A stretch of DNA of 64,000 nucleotides. It comes from Arthrobacter sp. MYb214 (GTDB lineage: Bacteria; Actinomycetota; Actinomycetes; Actinomycetales; Micrococcaceae). Location: NCBI RefSeq assembly GCF_002979865.1, contig NZ_PCPZ01000005.1:186001-250000 (forward strand), read 5' to 3'. Within the stretch, counting starts at the first letter, position 1; the number at the start of each line of letters is the position of its first letter. The position numbers and the translations under genes are program-made. Shown here one piece after another: positions 20,175 through 28,960 of the stretch. The notes below the pieces were generated by a model, which did no database searches, was not told the origin of the DNA, and saw only the letters and a list, made by a program, of their open reading frames with translations.

Positions 20175-21377
20175 ATGAAACTGCGCAATATCACCCTTGG
20201 CACGGCAACTCTGGCTTTGGCCGTCACCCTGGCAGCTCCCGCCGTGGCTGCTCAGATCGAACCGACTGGATCTGATCCACTGATCATCGGCCACCGCGGA
20301 GCAGCAGGCGTGGCACCGGAGAACACCTTGGCTGCCATCAAGGCAGGCAGCCAGTCCGGCGCCGAATTCATCGAAATTGATGTGCAGCTGTCCAAGGACG
20401 GAGTACCGTTCATCTTCCACGACGGTACGCCCTCCCGCACCACGAACGTGGCAGAGGTCTTCCCTGACCGCGTCAATGACCCCATCACGTCATTTACCTG
20501 GGAAGAACTGCAGCAGCTCGATGCCGGTTCCTACTTCTCAGACGAGTTCGAGGGAACGAAAATTCCCCATTTCGATGAGGTTCCAGGTGCACTGACCGGT
20601 GGCACGGGAGTATTCATCGAAATCAAGGATCCAGCCAAGTCCCCTGGCGTGGAGAAGCTGGTAGCCGACGCGCTGGCTGAGGATCCTGAATGGAAGGCAC
20701 TGGCAGAGGCCAACAAGATCGAGGTCCTTAGCTTCGACGCAGCATCCAACCAGATCTTTGCCCAACTGGCACCTGAAGTACCACTGCAGCAGCTGACCGG
20801 AACCGTGCCTTCTGCCGCGGAACTGGCAACCTACGCGACCTACGCGGATTCTTTCGGCACTAGCTACCGCACCCTTGACGCCGCCGGTGCGCAGCGCGTG
20901 AAGGACGCAGGCTTGGGCCTGGGCGTCTACACCGTCAACGCCGTCGAAGCAGCCGATGCTGCACTGGCCCTGGGTGTTGAGCGAATCACCGGCGACTTCC
21001 CAGCACAGGTGAACCGCCACATCGCTGGCCAGAAAGATTTCCCTGCCAACAATGGCGTGGTGATTGCCAACGCGATCAATGACGTGCCGGGAGATGACAT
21101 CGCCCCGGAAAATGGCGAGCACGTTATCCTGGAGAACACCGGAAAGCGCACCATCGATGTCAGCGGCTACATCATTCGCGATGCCGCTAACAACATCCTT
21201 GAAATTGGAGAAGGATACGAGCTGGAGACAGGAGATCAGCTGCGCGTGTACTCGGGTCCGGGTACCAACAGCGAAGAAGCCTACTACGTGGACGGACCGG
21301 GAATCCTGAACAACGGTGGCGACTCGCTGGCGCTGTGGGATGCCAAGGGCAAGCTCACCGATACCTTCGCGAACTAG
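20175..21377 (+). CDS. Secreted glycerophosphodiester phosphodiesterase with lamin-tail domain
   Basis: A 400-residue exported protein. The signal peptide (MKLRNITLGTATLALAVTL, cleavage near AVAA) is followed by a GDPD domain with HRGAAGVAPENTLAAI (catalytic His), EIDVQLSKDGVPFIFHD (metal Glu/Asp and second His) and VFIEIKDP. It hydrolyses glycerophosphodiesters, giving glycerol phosphate. From about residue 290 a lamin-tail domain is visible (VILENTGKRTIDVSGYIIRD, then LRVYSGPGTNSEEAYYVDGP), a surface-attachment module. Confidence 0.9.
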   Translation: MKLRNITLGTATLALAVTLAAPAVAAQIEPTGSDPLIIGHRGAAGVAPENTLAAIKAGSQSGAEFIEIDVQLSKDGVPFIFHDGTPSRTTNVAEVFPDRVNDPITSFTWEELQQLDAGSYFSDEFEGTKIPHFDEVPGALTGGTGVFIEIKDPAKSPGVEKLVADALAEDPEWKALAEANKIEVLSFDAASNQIFAQLAPEVPLQQLTGTVPSAAELATYATYADSFGTSYRTLDAAGAQRVKDAGLGLGVYTVNAVEAADAALALGVERITGDFPAQVNRHIAGQKDFPANNGVVIANAINDVPGDDIAPENGEHVILENTGKRTIDVSGYIIRDAANNILEIGEGYELETGDQLRVYSGPGTNSEEAYYVDGPGILNNGGDSLALWDAKGKLTDTFAN

Positions 21378-21411
21378 CTCTAGGTAGAGCGAACCCCCGG
21401 GAACCATTGTG

Positions 21412-21465
21412 GACTGCTCCCCAGAATTTGGATAGGGAAACCAGTACTACTTCCGGGGAGCAGTC
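21412..21465. repeat. Imperfect inverted repeat, terminator or IS-end relic
   Basis: GACTGCTCCCCAGAA (21412-21426) pairs with the 15 bases ending at 21465 at 14 of 15 positions. The sequence resembles IS3-type terminal repeats, but the 28-bp interior holds no gene. It may also be the terminator of the phosphodiesterase gene. Confidence 0.4.
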
Positions 21466-21595
21466 TACAAAAATGGGGCGGTTTTCCGTATTAAGGCAGG
21501 CAACCCGCCAGCACTTGGGCGACGCTGACGGGTTTCACCAGCGTGAGGCCGCTCTTGGGGAAACGAACTCAATGCCTGACTGGTGACTTTTCGTA

Positions 21596-21611
21596 ATTGG
21601 CCTAGGCCAAT
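21596..21611. repeat. 16-bp perfect palindrome
   Basis: The sequence ATTGGCCTAGGCCAAT is a perfect palindrome outside any gene. Confidence 0.35.
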
Positions 21612-21813
21612 AGCTACTGTAGTTGCAGGAGAGTGAAAGGTGAAGTGGGCGGGGATAAAATAAAAACTTTTCCCAATTCCAAAAATTCTCTAGGCGTTAT
21701 GGGCTTGACGAAGTATTCTGTGCATAGGTTTCACGCCGGACTAACGTTTTTTGGGGAATCGGAAGTCTTTGGGGAGATGGATGGGGATCCATCGCCCAGC
21801 GCAAAACTCGCAA

Positions 21814-21849
21814 CCAGCCCTCGTTGATGATCGAATCAGCGAGGGCTGG
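21814..21849. terminator. Terminator-like hairpin
   Basis: A 10-bp GC-rich stem (21814-21823 with 21840-21849) is extended by four inner base pairs. T-run support is weak. Confidence 0.4.
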
Positions 21850-22456
21850 ATTAGTTTAAGTGACAACACGCGGGTGGATTCTCACGAGCAACAAGGCCGC
21901 ACTCCCCAGTACGGGTCGGGATTTGAATCTGTTGTGGATTCCCAATGAATCAGACCAGCCTCTTTGCCTACACCTCGCTCGACGCTAGGGTGATTGATAG
22001 GCGGCCTGACCCAATGCACCGGGAAGGGTCCGCTGTGATCGGTTGCACCGTTTGTTTGCCTTCTTGCTTACCGTTTGTTGGCAGCAACTGTAGCTGGGAA
22101 CCCCTATCGGTGGTTCCGGTGTTGTAGTAGGCTCCGGGACCACCGCCAGCTTGGAACGCGGACACTAGCTGTTTGGATTCAGCTAGTATGAGAACGACGG
22201 TCATGGATGCCGTCAGTTTGGTGATCCGTAAGTGCAAGCGAAACTGCGACTGCGATCTTTCGCCTTGTCTTCGTCATTGTTGTATGTACGTTGTTGGAGA
22301 GTTCCATCCGGTTCCCGCCAAACGACTCGATAACTGTAACCGTGCTTTAGCTCTCGTCGTTGTACCGTCGCCACTTCTACCTTTAACCCGGTTGTTCTAT
22401 CTTTAATGCAACAGATCCGGAGTTTAAGGCAACAAGCCGATTTGAGATAAGAAAAA

Positions 22457-22481
22457 CCCCGGAATCACAAGGATTCCGGGG
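22457..22481 (-). terminator. Terminator, probably of the displaced tRNA-Ser 3' end
   Basis: A 10-bp perfect stem (22457-22466 with 22472-22481); on the minus strand it is followed by a T-run. It sits directly beyond the duplicated tRNA fragment at 22491-22515. It probably was the tRNA-Ser terminator before the island inserted. Confidence 0.75.
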
Positions 22482-22490
22482 CTATTCAAC

Positions 22491-22515
22491 GCGGTGACGG
22501 TGGGATTTGAACCCA
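22491..22515. repeat. Distal att core: duplicated 3' end of tRNA-Ser
   Basis: The 25 bp are identical to 25200-25224, the acceptor and T-arm portion of the intact tRNA-Ser(CGA). Identity stops abruptly after the final A. This is the direct repeat expected from tyrosine-recombinase integration into a tRNA 3' end. Confidence 0.88.
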
Positions 22516-22619
22516 TTATCCTATCCGCGCCATTACTGCTAGCTCCCGAATATCCCTTGTGTTTACTGGCATCTGGGCTCATTGGCTCACAGGTGCGCAC
22601 CACGTCCCACAGGTATTCC

Positions 22620-22646
22620 TGCACCAAAATGCACCACAGTGCACCA
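22620..22646. repeat. Three TGCACCA repeats at 10-bp period, candidate integrase arm sites
   Basis: TGCACCA occurs at 22620-22626, 22630-22636 and 22640-22646, exactly one helical turn apart, just after the integrase stop codon. The same motif recurs twice at the other island end (25131-25148). Confidence 0.65.
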
Positions 22647-22649
22647 CCG

Positions 22650-22931
22650 TTAGAGCTGTTCGGCGCGCTGCTTGCTGAGGGCTTCGACCACGTTGTCGAG
22701 GTCGTCGGGGAACAGTGCCGCGTAGGTGTCCAACGTGACCTTGGCCGACTTGTGGCCGAGCATGCGCTGTACCACCTTGACGTTGGCCCCGGCGCTGATT
22801 GCCAGCGATGCCGCCGTGTGCCGCAGGTCGTGGGGCGTGACCCTGCGGAACGACTTGTCGGACGCCTGGGCTCGCTTCACGGCTCCGGTGAACCATCCGG
22901 TCTTGGCGTTGCCCGGGTTCGCCCCTCCTAC
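22650..22931 (-). pseudogene. Tyrosine recombinase (integrase), C-terminal fragment
   Basis: About 93 codons are left. The catalytic C-terminus is preserved: HDLRHTAASLAISAGANVKV (Arg box with His-x2-Arg), VVQRMLGHKSAKVTLDTYA (His and the nucleophile Tyr). The frame is closed upstream by a TAA at 22932-22934. Nothing of the core-binding or arm-binding domains remains, so this is a truncated gene. It lies 135 bp from the distal att repeat, the normal place of an integrase in a tRNA-targeted element. Confidence 0.88.
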
Positions 22932-23119
22932 TTAAGTAGTATTTACGCCGTTCTTATTTAATGGTGATTATTAAACGTGCTCGTATCTGAGGCAATTCGA
23001 TCCAGACCGAGGACTTTTGTTGCGGAGGCTCGATTTCGGTCGACCCCCGCTTGGCACGGCAGATGATGCGCCGATCTTTACGAAGATGTAGATTTCGATT
23101 CATTCAAAAGGTGATAGTC

Positions 23120-23869
23120 GTGAAGCTCAAACTTCACTCGATTGCGGTCAGGTCAAATGAAGACCACTGCATTCCAATCCCAACATCAAGACAACAATCC
23201 AGCTCCGGGGTCACGTACCTCGCGATCGCTTTCGTGGCAATCGCTTCCCTGGTCCTGAGCCTGAGTACGGCTTTGACTCAGCCAGCGGCGGCCGCTTCGT
23301 CTCCGGCTGTGACCAGCATCGCCAGCTTCGGCGAGAACGCAGAGATTCTGTCGAAGTCGGAGGCCCTCCAGTTGGCCAAGAATGCCGATCTTCCAACAGA
23401 GTCGCTCTCAGGTCTGAAAGTTGACCGTTCCGGCGTCCAAGCATGGTCGATGTCAGACGGGACATCGTATGTGAGCTACCCGCTCGTCGGCGACGGCGTC
23501 CAGCTCGCCACAGTCGGTGCACTCCTGGACAACTCAGGCAACGTTGCGCAGCGCACAGAGATGGCTTTCGTTGGCGACGATGCATCTGGTCATGCCCGCA
23601 TGTGGGTTGACGGAAATCTGACCATGGACAATCAATTGACCACTGCTGACGCGGCAAACAACGTCACCACATATGCCGGTTTCTGGGACAAGCTCAACAA
23701 CTGCCTTGCCAACGCGGGCATCCCTGGCTGGGTTATTACCGCCATCACTATCGCCTGCGCGGCGGTCTGCGTAGGAACCGTTGGGCTCGGCTGCGTGGGC
23801 TGCATCGCGGCAGCTGCGGGCGTCTGGGGCGGCCAGGTCGGCTATTGCATCGACCAGGCCCAGAAATAG
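23120..23869 (+). CDS. Secreted precursor with C-terminal six-Cys hydrophobic domain (bacteriocin-like), paralogue A
   Basis: GTG 23120, behind AAAGGTGATA, gives 249 residues. A long basic N-region precedes a hydrophobic signal (TYLAIAFVAIASLVLSLSTA) and a likely cleavage near QPAAAAS. A soluble region of about 110 residues follows, containing ARMWVDGNLT. The last 55 residues are very hydrophobic, Gly/Ala-rich and have six Cys at 195, 213, 217, 225, 228 and 243. The overall plan (exported leader region plus Cys-rich C-terminal peptide) resembles halocin C8-type bacteriocin precursors, whose N-terminal part acts as immunity. That function is inferred. Paralogue B starts 12 bp downstream. Confidence 0.7.
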   Translation: MKLKLHSIAVRSNEDHCIPIPTSRQQSSSGVTYLAIAFVAIASLVLSLSTALTQPAAAASSPAVTSIASFGENAEILSKSEALQLAKNADLPTESLSGLKVDRSGVQAWSMSDGTSYVSYPLVGDGVQLATVGALLDNSGNVAQRTEMAFVGDDASGHARMWVDGNLTMDNQLTTADAANNVTTYAGFWDKLNNCLANAGIPGWVITAITIACAAVCVGTVGLGCVGCIAAAAGVWGGQVGYCIDQAQK

Positions 23870-23881
23870 GAAGTGGTCAAC

Positions 23882-24574
23882 ATGAAAAAGATTTCGAAAG
23901 CAATCATCGCGATGGTTGCAGGCTGGGGGATGCTCTTCGCGGTTGCTAGTCCGGTCAACGCTTCCGAAAGCTCGTTCTCAACCAACCGGCCGCTTTCGGA
24001 TTCAACTGTTGAGCGAGCGATCGCAATAGCTGAGCCGAGTTTCGACGCTCAGCTGCGAAACGGCGCAGAAGTCGATATCAAGCAGGCGAACGTCGCCCGG
24101 ATCAATGGCTCCAGTTCGTTGATGGTGGCAGTGGCTACGTCTGGCGACGGCCACGACGAGGGTTCGTTCGCCGTTGCCGTCGTCGACGCCGCGGGAGACG
24201 TTGTCCAGAGCTTTGCGCAGGTTCAAGCTACGTACACCAGCGACAGCACTGCCGATGTGAAGCAGTGGGTCGATGGGAGTCTCCTTAAGCAGTGGACTGT
24301 TGAAGCCACTCCCGAAGCTGAAGCTCAGGCTGCGAAGGCTTTGAGCGCCATGTCTCCTGCAGACTCGTCGGTGGGCGTTGCGGCCGCTGGTAACGAGGGT
24401 GTGATCAAGTGCCTCAACGCGCTGGGCATCTCCACCATGGCGGCGCTCGTGATCATCTCCACCTGTGCGGCATTCTGTGCTGTTACCGTTGGAACAGGCT
24501 GCATCATCTGCGTGGCTGGGTTCACCGCTGTCGCTGGCGCATCCGTAGGACAGTGCCTGAGCGGTGCCAGCTAG
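23882..24574 (+). CDS. Secreted precursor with C-terminal six-Cys hydrophobic domain (bacteriocin-like), paralogue B
   Basis: ATG 23882, after an AGGAAGTGG box, gives 230 residues with a clean signal peptide (KKISKAIIAMVAGWGMLFAV, cleavage near VNA-SE). The middle region shares with paralogue A a segment containing KQWVDGSLL. The C-terminal 54 residues have six Cys at 177, 195, 199, 207, 210 and 225, exactly the same spacing as paralogue A: C-x17-C-x3-C-x7-C-x2-C-x14-C. Sequence between the Cys differs, so this is an old duplication under conserved spacing. The likely product is a disulfide-stapled hydrophobic peptide released by proteolysis (inference). Confidence 0.7.
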   Translation: MKKISKAIIAMVAGWGMLFAVASPVNASESSFSTNRPLSDSTVERAIAIAEPSFDAQLRNGAEVDIKQANVARINGSSSLMVAVATSGDGHDEGSFAVAVVDAAGDVVQSFAQVQATYTSDSTADVKQWVDGSLLKQWTVEATPEAEAQAAKALSAMSPADSSVGVAAAGNEGVIKCLNALGISTMAALVIISTCAAFCAVTVGTGCIICVAGFTAVAGASVGQCLSGAS

Positions 24575-24595
24575 GCACGAGAAAGGAAACGGCAA

Positions 24596-24811
24596 ATGAC
24601 AAAGCAACCTAGCAATTCGTCTGCCGCCAGGAAGAGTACCGTGGTGGTGCTTCTGTTCCTTGCGGTAGCCGCGATCAACCTGCCACGGGTCCCTCAGCTT
24701 ACCGGCTACGCCGTGGTTGGATGGGCTGTTGGCGGAGTACTGCTGCTAGCAGCGCTGATCCTGGCGTTCACCAACTACCGCCACCACTCAAAGACCAGCA
24801 CTTCACGATAG
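24596..24811 (+). CDS. Two-helix small membrane protein, candidate immunity protein
   Basis: ATG 24596, preceded by AAAGGAAACGG, encodes 71 residues with two hydrophobic helices (about residues 14-31 and 38-60), a polar N-terminus and a basic C-terminus (TNYRHHSKTSTSR). It follows paralogue B by 21 bp in the same orientation and is likely co-transcribed. Small membrane proteins in this position usually protect the producer of membrane-active peptides. No family is recognised, so the immunity role is inferred from position only. Confidence 0.6.
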   Translation: MTKQPSNSSAARKSTVVVLLFLAVAAINLPRVPQLTGYAVVGWAVGGVLLLAALILAFTNYRHHSKTSTSR

Positions 24812-25197: not shown

Positions 25198-25288
25198 TGG
25201 CGGTGACGGTGGGATTTGAACCCACGGTACGGGGTTACCGTACACAACATTTCGAGTGTTGCACCTTCGGCCGCTCGGACACGTCACC
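25198..25288 (-). tRNA. tRNA-Ser (anticodon CGA)
   Basis: The acceptor GGTGACG pairs with CGTCACC, discriminator G, and CCA is encoded (25200-25198). The anticodon loop CTCGAAA gives CGA, with a long variable arm as in serine tRNAs. Its 3' half is duplicated at 22491-22515 and served as the integration target. Confidence 0.94.
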
Positions 25289-26695: not shown

Positions 26696-26729
26696 CCGAA
26701 GGCTGCGGTGACTACACCGCAGCCTTCGG
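26696..26729. terminator. Convergent terminator of upp and the kinase gene
   Basis: A 15-bp stem (26696-26710 with 26715-26729) with a 4-nt loop. The right arm overlaps the last codons of the histidine kinase; TTTC follows on the plus strand. Confidence 0.65.
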
Positions 26730-28223
26730 CGTTTCTTCACCGGTTTCGGGCGTGTCCAGCGGAAGCCGGACCTCGAAGACGGTATCTCCTGGCTGGGAGG
26801 TGACCGTGACGGTGCCCCCGTGGGCTTCGACGATGCTCTTGGCGATCGGCAGGCCCAGCCCGGTCGTGCCATCGGAGCCAGAACGCGCCTTGTCGGCGCG
26901 GGTGAAACGTTCGAAGACCCGAGGCAGGAATTCCGGGGCAATGCCCTCACCGGTGTCGTGAACCCGGATGATGGCTTCATCGGTGTCTTCGTCTTGGTCC
27001 ACCGAAACGGTGACGGTGTTTCCGGCCGTCGTGTGCTTGCGGGCGTTGGCCAAGAGGTTGGTGATCACCCGGCGAAGCGAGGCCGAGTCGCCATTGACAA
27101 TGGTCTGCGGCGCCTGGCAGTCGAACTCCCAATGGTGGTCGCTCGCGGTGAGCTTGAAGTCCTCGGTGATATCCGATGTCAGCGAGCACAGGTCAATTTC
27201 GCTGCGCTTGAACGCATTCTCCTCATCCAGCCGAGCCAGGAGCAGCAGATTCTCAACCAGTGAGCTCATTCGGCTGCTTTGCTGCAGAACGCGGTCCACC
27301 GAGCGCTGCCCGTCCGGGGAGAAATGCTCAGTGGCCGAGAGCAGCTCGGTGTAGCCGCGGATCGCCGAGAGCGGAGTGCGCAGTTCGTGCGAGGCATCGG
27401 CGACAAATTGGCGCATCTGGGCCTGGGACTTCTCGCGGGCGGTCAGTGCGGTGGAGACGTTGCTGATCATCGCGTTCAGCGCATTGCCGACATTGCCCAC
27501 CTCGGTGCCGGGGACTGCATCTTGCGCCGGGACGCGCTGGGTCAGGTCCACCTTTCCTGAATCAAGCTCTTCGGCGGCAACCGAAGCAGCCACGGTGGCC
27601 ACGCGCTTCAGCGAGGCAAGCGAGCGGGAGATCAGCCACGAACCGGCCAGGCCCGCACCGGCGATCAGGATCAAGGCGATGAACAGCGTCAGCCAGGCCA
27701 TGCCGCGCAACGCCAGATCGGTGCTGTGCAGGGGCAAACCGACAATCAGGATGCCGTTGGATCCAGAGTCCTTGACTGCGACGAGGTAATAGTCGCCCAC
27801 AGTCAGGTGGGCACGTACCGGCTTGAACTGCCCGCCGGCACGCAACGTGCTCAGCTCCAGATCCACCATCGGGATGGCATCTTCCTGGCTCAGCTGCTTC
27901 AGCACGCCGGTGCGTTCGTCCAGCACCCCGCCGTTGAAGACGTATTTGTCGACGAACCGCGCGGTCAGCGTGCCGGCGGACTGGCCGGGGGCATCAAGCC
28001 GGGAGTTCACCGCTGGTGCACCCTGCGAATAATTCAGCGCGCGTTCGGTGGTGAGCCGCAGCTGGCTGTTGAGCTGGTCCATCAAGGTCTGGCGCATGCC
28101 CGCGTTATAGAGCAGGCCGAGCAAGACAGATACGGCGGTGACCGAGGTCAGCAGGATGAGCAGCAGTTTGCGCTGCAGCGCGTGCGGCGAGCTCACCCTG
28201 GTATTCGGGGAAAAGAAACTCAT
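26712..28223 (-). CDS. Sensor histidine kinase (OmpR-system type)
   Basis: A 503-residue membrane kinase: transmembrane segment 1 at about 19-39, an extracellular sensor region of about 130 residues, segment 2 at about 174-198, then HAMP. The HisKA motif ASHELRTPLSAIRGY has the phospho-acceptor His 279. The ATPase domain shows the N box (LLANARKHT), the DTGEGI box and GLGLPIAKSIVEAHGG. Its start overlaps the stop of the response-regulator gene (ATGA). The overall pattern resembles TrcS-type kinases. The signal sensed is unknown. Confidence 0.93.
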   Translation of the reverse strand: MSFFSPNTRVSSPHALQRKLLLILLTSVTAVSVLLGLLYNAGMRQTLMDQLNSQLRLTTERALNYSQGAPAVNSRLDAPGQSAGTLTARFVDKYVFNGGVLDERTGVLKQLSQEDAIPMVDLELSTLRAGGQFKPVRAHLTVGDYYLVAVKDSGSNGILIVGLPLHSTDLALRGMAWLTLFIALILIAGAGLAGSWLISRSLASLKRVATVAASVAAEELDSGKVDLTQRVPAQDAVPGTEVGNVGNALNAMISNVSTALTAREKSQAQMRQFVADASHELRTPLSAIRGYTELLSATEHFSPDGQRSVDRVLQQSSRMSSLVENLLLLARLDEENAFKRSEIDLCSLTSDITEDFKLTASDHHWEFDCQAPQTIVNGDSASLRRVITNLLANARKHTTAGNTVTVSVDQDEDTDEAIIRVHDTGEGIAPEFLPRVFERFTRADKARSGSDGTTGLGLPIAKSIVEAHGGTVTVTSQPGDTVFEVRLPLDTPETGEETPKAAV

Positions 28224-28960
28224 GCAGCCGGCTTCAGCACGTAGCCAACGCCACGCACGGTGTGGATCATCGGCTCTGCGTCAACGTCAATCTTCTTGCG
28301 CAGGTACGAGATGTACAGTTCGACGATGTTCGCCTGGCCGTCGAAATCGTAGTGCCAGACGTTGTCCAGGATCTGCGACTTGGATACCACGCGGCGGGCG
28401 TTGTTCATCAGGTAGCTGAGCAGGTCGAATTCGGTGGCGGTCAGCGAAATTTCGCGGCCTGCGCGGGATACGTCGTGCGAGTCCATGTTCAGCACCAGAT
28501 CGCCGACCACCAATTCAGCGGAATCCGCAGTGGCCGCGCCTGAACGTTCCACGAGTCGGTGCAATCGGATCAGGACTTCTTCGAGGCTGAAGGGCTTGGC
28601 GACGTAGTCGTCTGCACCGGCCCCCAGGCCCTCGATACGGTCTTCAACCGCGTCCTTGGCAGTGAGGAAAAGTACGGGGATTTCAGGGAAGTGGGTGCGC
28701 ACCTTGCGCAGCACCTCGGGGCCGTCGAACCCAGGCAGCATCCAGTCGAGAACCAGTACGTCCGGCGCCAGGGAGCGAGCGGTGGCTACTGCTTCGGGCC
28801 CATCGTGGGCCATCGTGGCTTCCCAGCCGAGCATGCGGGTTCCCATGGCGACCAATTCCGCCAATGAAGGTTCATCATCGACCACGAGAACTTTGATTGC
28901 CGTGCCATCAGGGTGAGTCAGCCGGGGCAATTGCGAAGGGGAGAATCGTGATTCATTCAT
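28220..28960 (-). CDS. OmpR-family response regulator
   Basis: A 246-residue regulator. The receiver domain has the acidic pair in VLVVDDEPSLAEL, phospho-acceptor Asp 72 in VLVLDWMLPGFDG, and the conserved Lys in DDYVAKPFSLEEVL. A winged-helix DNA-binding domain follows (SLTATEFDLLSYLMNNARRV, then NIVELYISYLRKKID). It is first in an operon with the histidine kinase and most resembles TrcR-type regulators. A 20-residue extension precedes the receiver. Confidence 0.93.
   Translation of the reverse strand: MNESRFSPSQLPRLTHPDGTAIKVLVVDDEPSLAELVAMGTRMLGWEATMAHDGPEAVATARSLAPDVLVLDWMLPGFDGPEVLRKVRTHFPEIPVLFLTAKDAVEDRIEGLGAGADDYVAKPFSLEEVLIRLHRLVERSGAATADSAELVVGDLVLNMDSHDVSRAGREISLTATEFDLLSYLMNNARRVVSKSQILDNVWHYDFDGQANIVELYISYLRKKIDVDAEPMIHTVRGVGYVLKPAA

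What the first reader, a model, noticed from the sequence alone, without database searches (positions are those of the whole stretch)
23120..24574. Tandem secreted precursors with identical six-Cys spacing: candidate new bacteriocin family
Seen: two adjacent genes encode signal peptides, a soluble middle region and a hydrophobic Gly/Ala-rich C-terminus in which six Cys have exactly the same spacing (C-x17-C-x3-C-x7-C-x2-C-x14-C), although the residues between them differ. They share a WVDG-containing middle segment. Known: halocin C8 precursors join an N-terminal immunity part to a C-terminal Cys-rich peptide. Inference: the last about 55 residues are released as disulfide-stapled, membrane-active peptides, possibly working as a two-component pair.
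Basis: partly seen in the sequence, partly recalled or inferred. Interest (0 to 1): 0.92.

Follow-up and report, generated by a model that had tools for sequence, protein, structure and literature searches.

The report
Six-cysteine bacteriocin precursors with immunity gene
Two neighbouring bacterial genes very probably encode secreted, disulfide-stapled antibacterial peptides, with a small membrane protein beside them that probably protects the producer and that some relatives have kept after losing the peptides.

Summary
Two adjacent genes (23120-23869, 23882-24574) encode secreted precursors whose C-termini share C-x17-C-x3-C-x7-C-x2-C-x14-C. The spacing is a family trait: exact in 13 of 21 relatives outside the window, from Streptomyces to Bacillus plasmids. 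No Pfam or NCBIfam model claims them; TIGR04450 (Gpos_C8_like) matches both far below its cut-off. A homologue or look-alike is beside or fused to the precursor in 15 of 20 other loci. In five other species of the genus, and one genome of another genus of the family, the precursor is a fossil while the two-TM gene is open: the expected mark of an immunity gene. The cassette lies between 25-bp repeats of a tRNA-Ser end, beside an integrase fragment. Best reading: a mobile bacteriocin-immunity cassette; peptides exported by Sec, oxidised, cut free outside and acting on membranes. Immunity is inferred for the two-TM protein, not for the precursor's N-terminal part. Killing, cleavage and pair action are untested.

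The parts
23120..23869 (+). Precursor A, GTG start, 249 aa: long signal peptide, middle domain, six-Cys core
   Evidence: AAGGTGAT upstream
23702..23848 (+). Core of A, Cys1 to Cys6, spacing 17-3-7-2-14
23603..23614 (+). WVDG of the middle domain of A; W162 and G165 are nearly invariant in 12 aligned sequences (A and B included)
23882..24574 (+). Precursor B, 230 aa: signal peptide, middle domain, six-Cys core
24410..24556 (+). Core of B, Cys1 to Cys6, spacing 17-3-7-2-14
24596..24811 (+). Candidate immunity gene: 71 aa, two TM segments, net charge +7, 21 bases after B
22491..22515 (+). Left copy of the 25-bp direct repeat (putative attachment site)
25200..25224 (+). Right copy of the 25-bp direct repeat, inside the end of tRNA-Ser(cga) 25198-25288 (-)
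22650..22931 (-). C-terminal fragment of a tyrosine integrase (PF00589, E 8.4e-12)

Best explanation
The three genes 23120-24811 are a bacteriocin-immunity cassette. A and B are exported by the Sec route as proproteins (inferred from the signal peptides). Outside, the six Cys of the C-terminal core form three disulfides (inferred). An extracellular protease, not encoded in the cassette, cuts in the variable linker and releases a neutral, Gly/Ala-rich hydrophobic peptide of about 50-65 residues that enters and permeabilises the membrane of close competitors (inferred). The middle domain acts as a pro-part that keeps the core soluble and silent (inferred). The two-TM basic protein sits in the producer's membrane and blocks the peptide (inferred; supported by conserved neighbourhood, fusions and its survival in relatives that lost the precursor). 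The cassette lies in what looks like the remnant of an element inserted at tRNA-Ser (shown: repeat, integrase fragment).
For: Exact Cys spacing in 13 of 21 relatives outside the window. Two-TM partner: a profile of 8 same-genus two-TM proteins, run against 2225 six-frame ORFs of 15 loci, ranked first the ORF after the precursor in L040 (2.5e-8), then the N-terminal part of the L036 precursor (6.1e-4) and the ORF after the precursor in L037 (0.0076). With these added, the N-terminal parts of the L040 and L038 precursors came up at 4.8e-7 and 2.5e-4. In loci found later, an ORF beside the L069 precursor scored 6e-11. A fixed rule (written after I had seen many of the partners) finds a small two-TM ORF beside the precursor in 13 of 21 loci against 314 of 7399 random places, 4.2%. 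Orphans: close two-TM homologues (62-97% identity) in 5 of 17 other genomes of the genus, 6 copies, all open frames; beside 5 copies lies a broken C-terminal remnant of B, and beside G017:C6 a short stretch like A's signal peptide next to the end of B. No intact core in those 17 genomes at E up to 0.01. The same in another genus of the family (G601: B fossil at 1.3e-5, two-TM 51%). Broken precursor with open two-TM ORF also in L034 (Streptomyces) and L074. dN/dS of the two-TM gene against the window copy is 0.08-0.23 in 5 of 7 comparisons, and 0.32 between G001 and G010, which share the fossil (Fisher p 0.018). Such orphans have a published parallel: membrane immunity proteins ExiCD occur in strains without the glycine-zipper toxin EsxX (PMC12744356, abstract).
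Against: No activity data. No protease or transporter gene was noticed among the neighbouring ORFs (by eye; only some were scanned). The core is neutral, not cationic. The other two of the 7 dN/dS comparisons with the window copy are 0.56 (G017:C15, which also gives 0.83 against G015) and 0.63 (the 36% paralogue); several dS values exceed 1 and are rough. Between G001 and G010 the fossil differs by 16.0% and the two-TM gene by 10.6%, a modest difference. The two-TM profile is not fully specific: an unrelated GGDEF-like membrane protein scored 0.0039, level with the B. pumilus ORF (0.0041), and eight matches at 8e-5 to 9e-4 lie in open frames of 249-574 aa. Streptomyces two-TM ORFs are alike only in build; the profiles did not find them. 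L022 and L039 have no clear partner. L070 lacks the six-Cys pattern. 12 of 17 other genomes of the genus carry no close two-TM homologue.
Confidence: 0.72

Rival explanations
1. Halocin C8-like logic: the precursor's own N-terminal or middle domain gives immunity after cleavage, and the two-TM protein helps secretion or maturation.
For: TIGR04450, named 'putative immunity/bacteriocin fusion bifunctional protein', matches both window proteins at its C-terminal end, below cut-off (relatives). Halocin C8's precursor yields immunity peptide HalI plus the halocin (PMC11509114, passages).
Against: All TIGR04450 scores are below cut-off (best 13.2 of 27 bits). Relatives keep the two-TM gene, not the N-terminal domain; a maturation helper alone has no reason to survive its substrate.
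Confidence: 0.13
2. A secreted signal or surface protein: the Cys-rich tail is a pheromone, or a disulfide-stapled membrane anchor, and the two-TM protein is its receptor or membrane partner.
For: Secretion, a conserved Cys frame and a membrane partner would also fit signalling. What look like a sensor kinase and a response regulator lie at 26712-28960 on the other strand (by eye), though outside the repeat and beyond tRNA-Ser, tadA-like and upp-like genes.
Against: Nothing like a regulator was noticed between the two repeats (by eye). Patchy presence (8 of 197 family genomes matched), relatives on plasmids and repeated loss of the precursor with the partner kept are more usual for bacteriocins.
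Confidence: 0.1
3. The genus orphans are decaying leftovers without function, and the two-TM gene survives only because it is short.
For: G017:C15 shows relaxed dN/dS; divergence of gene and fossil between G001 and G010 differs only modestly.
Against: Six of six close copies in the genus are open frames at 62-97% identity beside broken precursors or fragments; dN/dS against the window copy is 0.08-0.23 for five of these six. A further open copy lies beside a fossil in another genus.
Confidence: 0.05

Closest known systems
NCBIfam TIGR04450, Gpos_C8_like (putative immunity/bacteriocin fusion bifunctional protein)
   Same: Precursor model of 240 positions; 8 of 14 precursors scanned match it in the C-terminal register (A, B, L023, L030, L031, L033, L038, L039), a ninth (L041) in an inner part; 0 of 8 shuffles match
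   Different: Never above cut-off (6.6-13.2 of 27 bits; E 0.051-5.1); none of six further relatives match it; here a separate or fused two-TM protein is the likely immunity part
Halocin C8 / HalI of haloarchaea
   Same: Secreted precursor with a released bacteriocin peptide (PMC11509114, passages)
   Different: Halocin C8 uses the Tat route, a 76-aa peptide and an immunity part HalI from the same precursor; no twin-arginine motif here, core about 50-65 aa, different likely immunity
PAMP and propionicin F of Propionibacterium
   Same: Actinobacterial proproteins processed by proteolysis; PAMP is the C-terminal part of a signal-peptide-bearing precursor, activated outside by protease; propionicin F has a membrane-protein immunity gene (PMC5756557, passages)
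   Different: No sequence relation was tested; PAMP and propionicin F sequences were not compared
EsxX glycine-zipper toxin with ExiCD (Staphylococcus)
   Same: Membrane-acting toxin end; membrane immunity proteins also kept as orphans (PMC12744356, abstract)
   Different: Type VII secretion and LXG domain there; Sec-like signal and six Cys here

Membership tests
TIGR04450 Gpos_C8_like | Score of at least the curated cut-off, 27 bits | tested here: not met
   A 6.8, B 11.1 bits; best relative L030 13.2 bits
TIGR04450 Gpos_C8_like | Alignment in the C-terminal register better than composition alone gives | tested here: inconclusive
   8 of 14 precursors match in the C-terminal register below cut-off, three of them close Streptomyces relatives; 0 of 8 shuffles match at E up to 10, but two of the 8 are of L022, which does not match unshuffled either; 0 of 6 later relatives match
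Halocin C8 | Tat signal peptide | tested here: not met
   No RR motif in the N-termini of A or B (by eye)
Halocin C8 | Match to a halocin C8 model | tested here: inconclusive
   None listed among NCBIfam matches up to E 10; whether such a model is in this library was not checked
Halocin C8 | A part of the precursor itself gives immunity | not testable with these tools
   Comparative evidence points to the two-TM protein instead
Sec-exported, protease-released bacteriocins (works like) | Signal peptide, pro-part, C-terminal core, linked membrane protein gene | tested here: met
   Anatomy only:
Sec-exported, protease-released bacteriocins (works like) | Release of the core by proteolysis and killing of relatives | not testable with these tools
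   Needs the bench
Two-peptide bacteriocin | Two precursors together, active as a pair | tested here: inconclusive
   One core per locus in L031-L041 (none in L034) and at most one in L069-L074; an A-like fragment next to the end of B beside an orphan two-TM gene (E 0.16) hints at an older pair

The most novel reading that the evidence does not exclude
A bacteriocin family not named in the libraries searched, shared by Actinomycetota and Bacillota: Sec-exported precursors with a 17-3-7-2-14 disulfide core and a sister type with 18-3-11-2-17, each with its own two-TM immunity protein that may be encoded before, after, or fused to the precursor. It moves on tRNA-borne elements and plasmids, and leaves immunity-only scars in relatives. 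In this genus A and B work as a pair guarded by one immunity protein.
Probability: 0.5. Interest if true: 0.75.

Novelty: new variant of a known kind. Interest (0 to 1): 0.62.

Why it matters
If true, it gives an almost unannotated bacteriocin family with a recognisable signature (core spacing plus two-TM neighbour), and an immunity gene that can be tested by itself. Orphan immunity genes beside toxin fossils in related species offer a natural record of chemical competition, and the fused forms raise the question of how one protein carries both toxin and protection.

Tried and rejected
Structure prediction of the alignment of 12 precursors was switched off, so disulfide pairing and fold are unknown; no fold search could follow. 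PDB by sequence gave nothing usable. Plasmid and phage searches with the Bacillus prophage-edge relative gave no match. One viral-contig scan gave nothing, a second gave one relative. A phylum-wide sample with the first four-core alignment found only the own genome of 396; the broader 12-sequence profile matched 8 of 197 family genomes, so may understate the spread. Recent tandem duplication of A into B was considered and not supported: A and B cores are 43% identical while A is 63% identical to the Nocardiopsis core, and the tree does not join them (weakly resolved, many open forks). Weak hits to other Pfam, NCBIfam and PHROGs families were set aside as below cut-off or, for PHROGs, which has no cut-off, as weak. 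Two-TM proteins of genus g13 (L083-L087) score by profile but no precursor was found within about 1.5 kb; I do not count them as orphans. The same holds for L091.

The 36%-identity two-TM paralogue (G003, G017:C16) is left out of the count of close orphans, but its G003 copy is in the profile. Other Bacillus plasmid hits (H2-H4) were not opened. Literature: searches (TIGR04450, TIGR04449, Gpos_C8_like, 'bacteriocin fusion bifunctional') found 0 papers. Only open PubMed Central papers are held, so this does not show that the family is unpublished. Seen of papers: PMC12893001 abstract and outline, PMC11509114 passages, PMC5756557 passages, PMC12744356 abstract and outline; others as listings.

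Full report
WHAT IS THERE. Gene A (23120-23869, GTG) and gene B (23882-24574) lie 12 bases apart, and a third gene (24596-24811) follows 21 bases later. A and B each have a signal-peptide-like N-terminus (by eye), a middle part with WVDG and a C-terminal hydrophobic core with six Cys at spacings 17-3-7-2-14. Both cores carry no net charge and are 35-36% Gly+Ala. The third gene encodes 71 residues with two hydrophobic segments and net charge +7.

THE SPACING IS A FAMILY TRAIT. tblastn of plasmid records found relatives in Bacillus plasmids and a Streptomyces plasmid. A scan of genome contigs (84,980 species) with a four-sequence alignment gave 11 loci: four Streptomyces, Corynebacterium spheniscorum, two Actinotalea, Curtobacterium, Virgibacillus, Promicromonospora citrea and Nocardiopsis. 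A profile search of 197 genomes of the window's family matched 8: the own genome, a remnant in G005 and six more loci, L069-L074. One relative lies at a viral contig's end. Of 23 sequences examined, 15 have exactly 17-3-7-2-14 and three have 18-3-11-2-17; the other five differ or are broken. The four Streptomyces cores L030-L033 are 90-100% identical, so the 15 are not all independent. The pattern fixes C-x3-C, so that step is partly selected for.

NAMED FAMILIES. Pfam gives nothing above cut-off for the precursors scanned. In NCBIfam, TIGR04450 (Gpos_C8_like) matches A at 6.8 and B at 11.1 bits against a cut-off of 27. Of 14 precursors scanned, eight (A, B, L023, L030, L031, L033, L038, L039) match in the C-terminal register, all below cut-off (E 0.051-5.1), one (L041) elsewhere, five not at all; 0 of 8 shuffled controls match (two of them are of L022, which does not match itself); 0 of 6 later relatives match. 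I read this as a possible distant kinship, not membership.

THE TWO-TM PARTNER. A profile of eight same-genus two-TM proteins was run against 2225 six-frame ORFs from 15 loci. The three best hits were the ORF after the precursor in L040 (2.5e-8), the N-terminal part of the precursor in L036 (6.1e-4) and the ORF after the precursor in L037 (0.0076); the fourth was the divergent ORF beside the B. pumilus precursor (0.22). With the first three added, the N-terminal parts of L040 and L038 came up at 4.8e-7 and 2.5e-4. So in three loci (L036, L038, L040) a two-TM domain is fused to the precursor. The profile is not fully specific: the B. pumilus ORF (0.0041) is level with a GGDEF-like membrane protein (0.0039), and an enlarged profile gave eight matches of 8e-5 to 9e-4 inside larger open frames. 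Among loci fetched later, an ORF beside the L069 precursor scored 6e-11 with the first profile. A fixed rule (50-85 aa, two hydrophobic segments, same strand, within 350 bases), written after many partners had been seen, found a partner in 13 of 21 loci, the window included, against 314 of 7399 random places. Outside the window that is 12 of 20; with the fusions L036 and L038 and with L069 it is 15 of 20. By eye, L035 and L070 also have one, and L023 has a divergent one; L022 and L039 have none that is clear. The five Streptomyces partners are alike in build only; the profiles did not find them.

FOSSIL TOXINS, OPEN PARTNERS. In the genus, close two-TM homologues (62-97%) occur in 5 of 17 other genomes, six copies. 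All six are open frames (the TAA that one search lists for G010 is the gene's own stop). Beside five of them lies a broken C-terminal remnant of B; beside the sixth (G017:C6) lie a 13-residue match to A's signal peptide (E 0.16, weak) and DNA from the end of B. In G015 the similarity jumps from window position 21398 to 24476, so A and most of B are absent. None of the 17 genomes has an intact core (E up to 0.01). In G601, of another genus of the family, a frame-broken B remnant (1.3e-5) again precedes an open two-TM gene (51%). L034 (Streptomyces) and L074 show a broken precursor and an open two-TM ORF. dN/dS of the two-TM gene against the window copy is 0.08 (G015), 0.23 (G005), 0.15 (G017:C6), 0.16 (G001) and 0.11 (G010), but 0.56 for G017:C15, which looks relaxed, and 0.63 for the 36% paralogue; several dS values exceed 1. 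G001 against G010, which share the fossil, gives 0.32 (Fisher p 0.018). Divergence of G001 and G010 is 16.0% in the fossil, 10.6% in the two-TM gene and 7.8% in the neighbouring transporter-like gene, so the contrast is modest. Part of the constraint may predate the loss of the precursor.

MOBILE SETTING. A 25-bp sequence at 22491-22515 is repeated exactly at 25200-25224, inside the end of tRNA-Ser(cga) 25198-25288. A C-terminal tyrosine integrase fragment (22650-22931, minus; PF00589, 8.4e-12) lies next to the left copy. The cassette therefore sits in what looks like the remnant of an element inserted at the tRNA gene. Relatives on mobilizable Bacillus plasmids and a (non-mobilizable) Streptomyces plasmid fit a mobile history.

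HOW IT MOST LIKELY WORKS. Export by Sec, oxidation of the core outside, proteolytic release from the pro-part, insertion in the membrane of close relatives, and protection of the producer by the two-TM protein. Shown: anatomy, conserved spacing, linkage, fusions, orphans, mobile setting. Inferred: export route, disulfides, cleavage, membrane action, immunity. Known parallels: halocin C8 (precursor gives immunity part and peptide; PMC11509114, passages), PAMP and propionicin F (PMC5756557, passages), and EsxX with ExiCD, where membrane immunity proteins also occur without the toxin (PMC12744356, abstract).

THE PAIR. No second precursor was seen in L031-L041 (loose pattern) or L069-L074 (profile). 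A and B cores are 43% identical, A and the Nocardiopsis core 63%; the tree puts B, weakly (76/86), with the 18-3-11-2-17 type. So A and B look like old relatives brought together or kept together, not a recent copy. Whether they act jointly is open.

VERDICT. It is a new variant of a known kind: not a member of TIGR04450 by its own cut-off, and not named in the libraries searched here.

Noticed in passing
22491-22515, 25200-25224, 22650-22931: 25-bp direct repeat of the tRNA-Ser(cga) end and an integrase fragment frame the cassette: a decayed tRNA-borne element of about 2.7 kb.
   Followed up: yes
L071, L072, L073: Relatives in the same bacterial family with a second six-Cys type, 18-3-11-2-17, each with a two-TM ORF directly after the precursor; L072 has two such ORFs in a row.
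   Followed up: partly
L036, L038, L040: The two-TM domain is fused to the N-terminus of the precursor; L040 has in addition a free copy downstream.
   Followed up: partly
L069:1498-2331 (-): An in-frame stop separates a signal-like stretch (2176-2331) from the precursor's middle domain and core: broken gene or sequencing error; its two-TM ORF upstream is open.
   Followed up: no
L067:158-415: A relative with first Cys gap 14 lies at the end of a viral contig, near ORFs that look like a lysin (LysM repeat, peptidoglycan-binding end) and a holin (by eye).
   Followed up: no
L035 and L039: The Corynebacterium and Virgibacillus precursors have their signal peptide in another frame than the core: broken genes or sequencing errors.
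   Followed up: no
L083-L087: Five genomes of one other genus (g13) carry a related-looking two-TM protein with no precursor found near; unknown role.
   Followed up: partly
20175-21377: Glycerophosphodiester phosphodiesterase (PF03009) with a C-terminal lamin-tail domain (PF00932) and a signal-like start, just left of the element.
   Followed up: no
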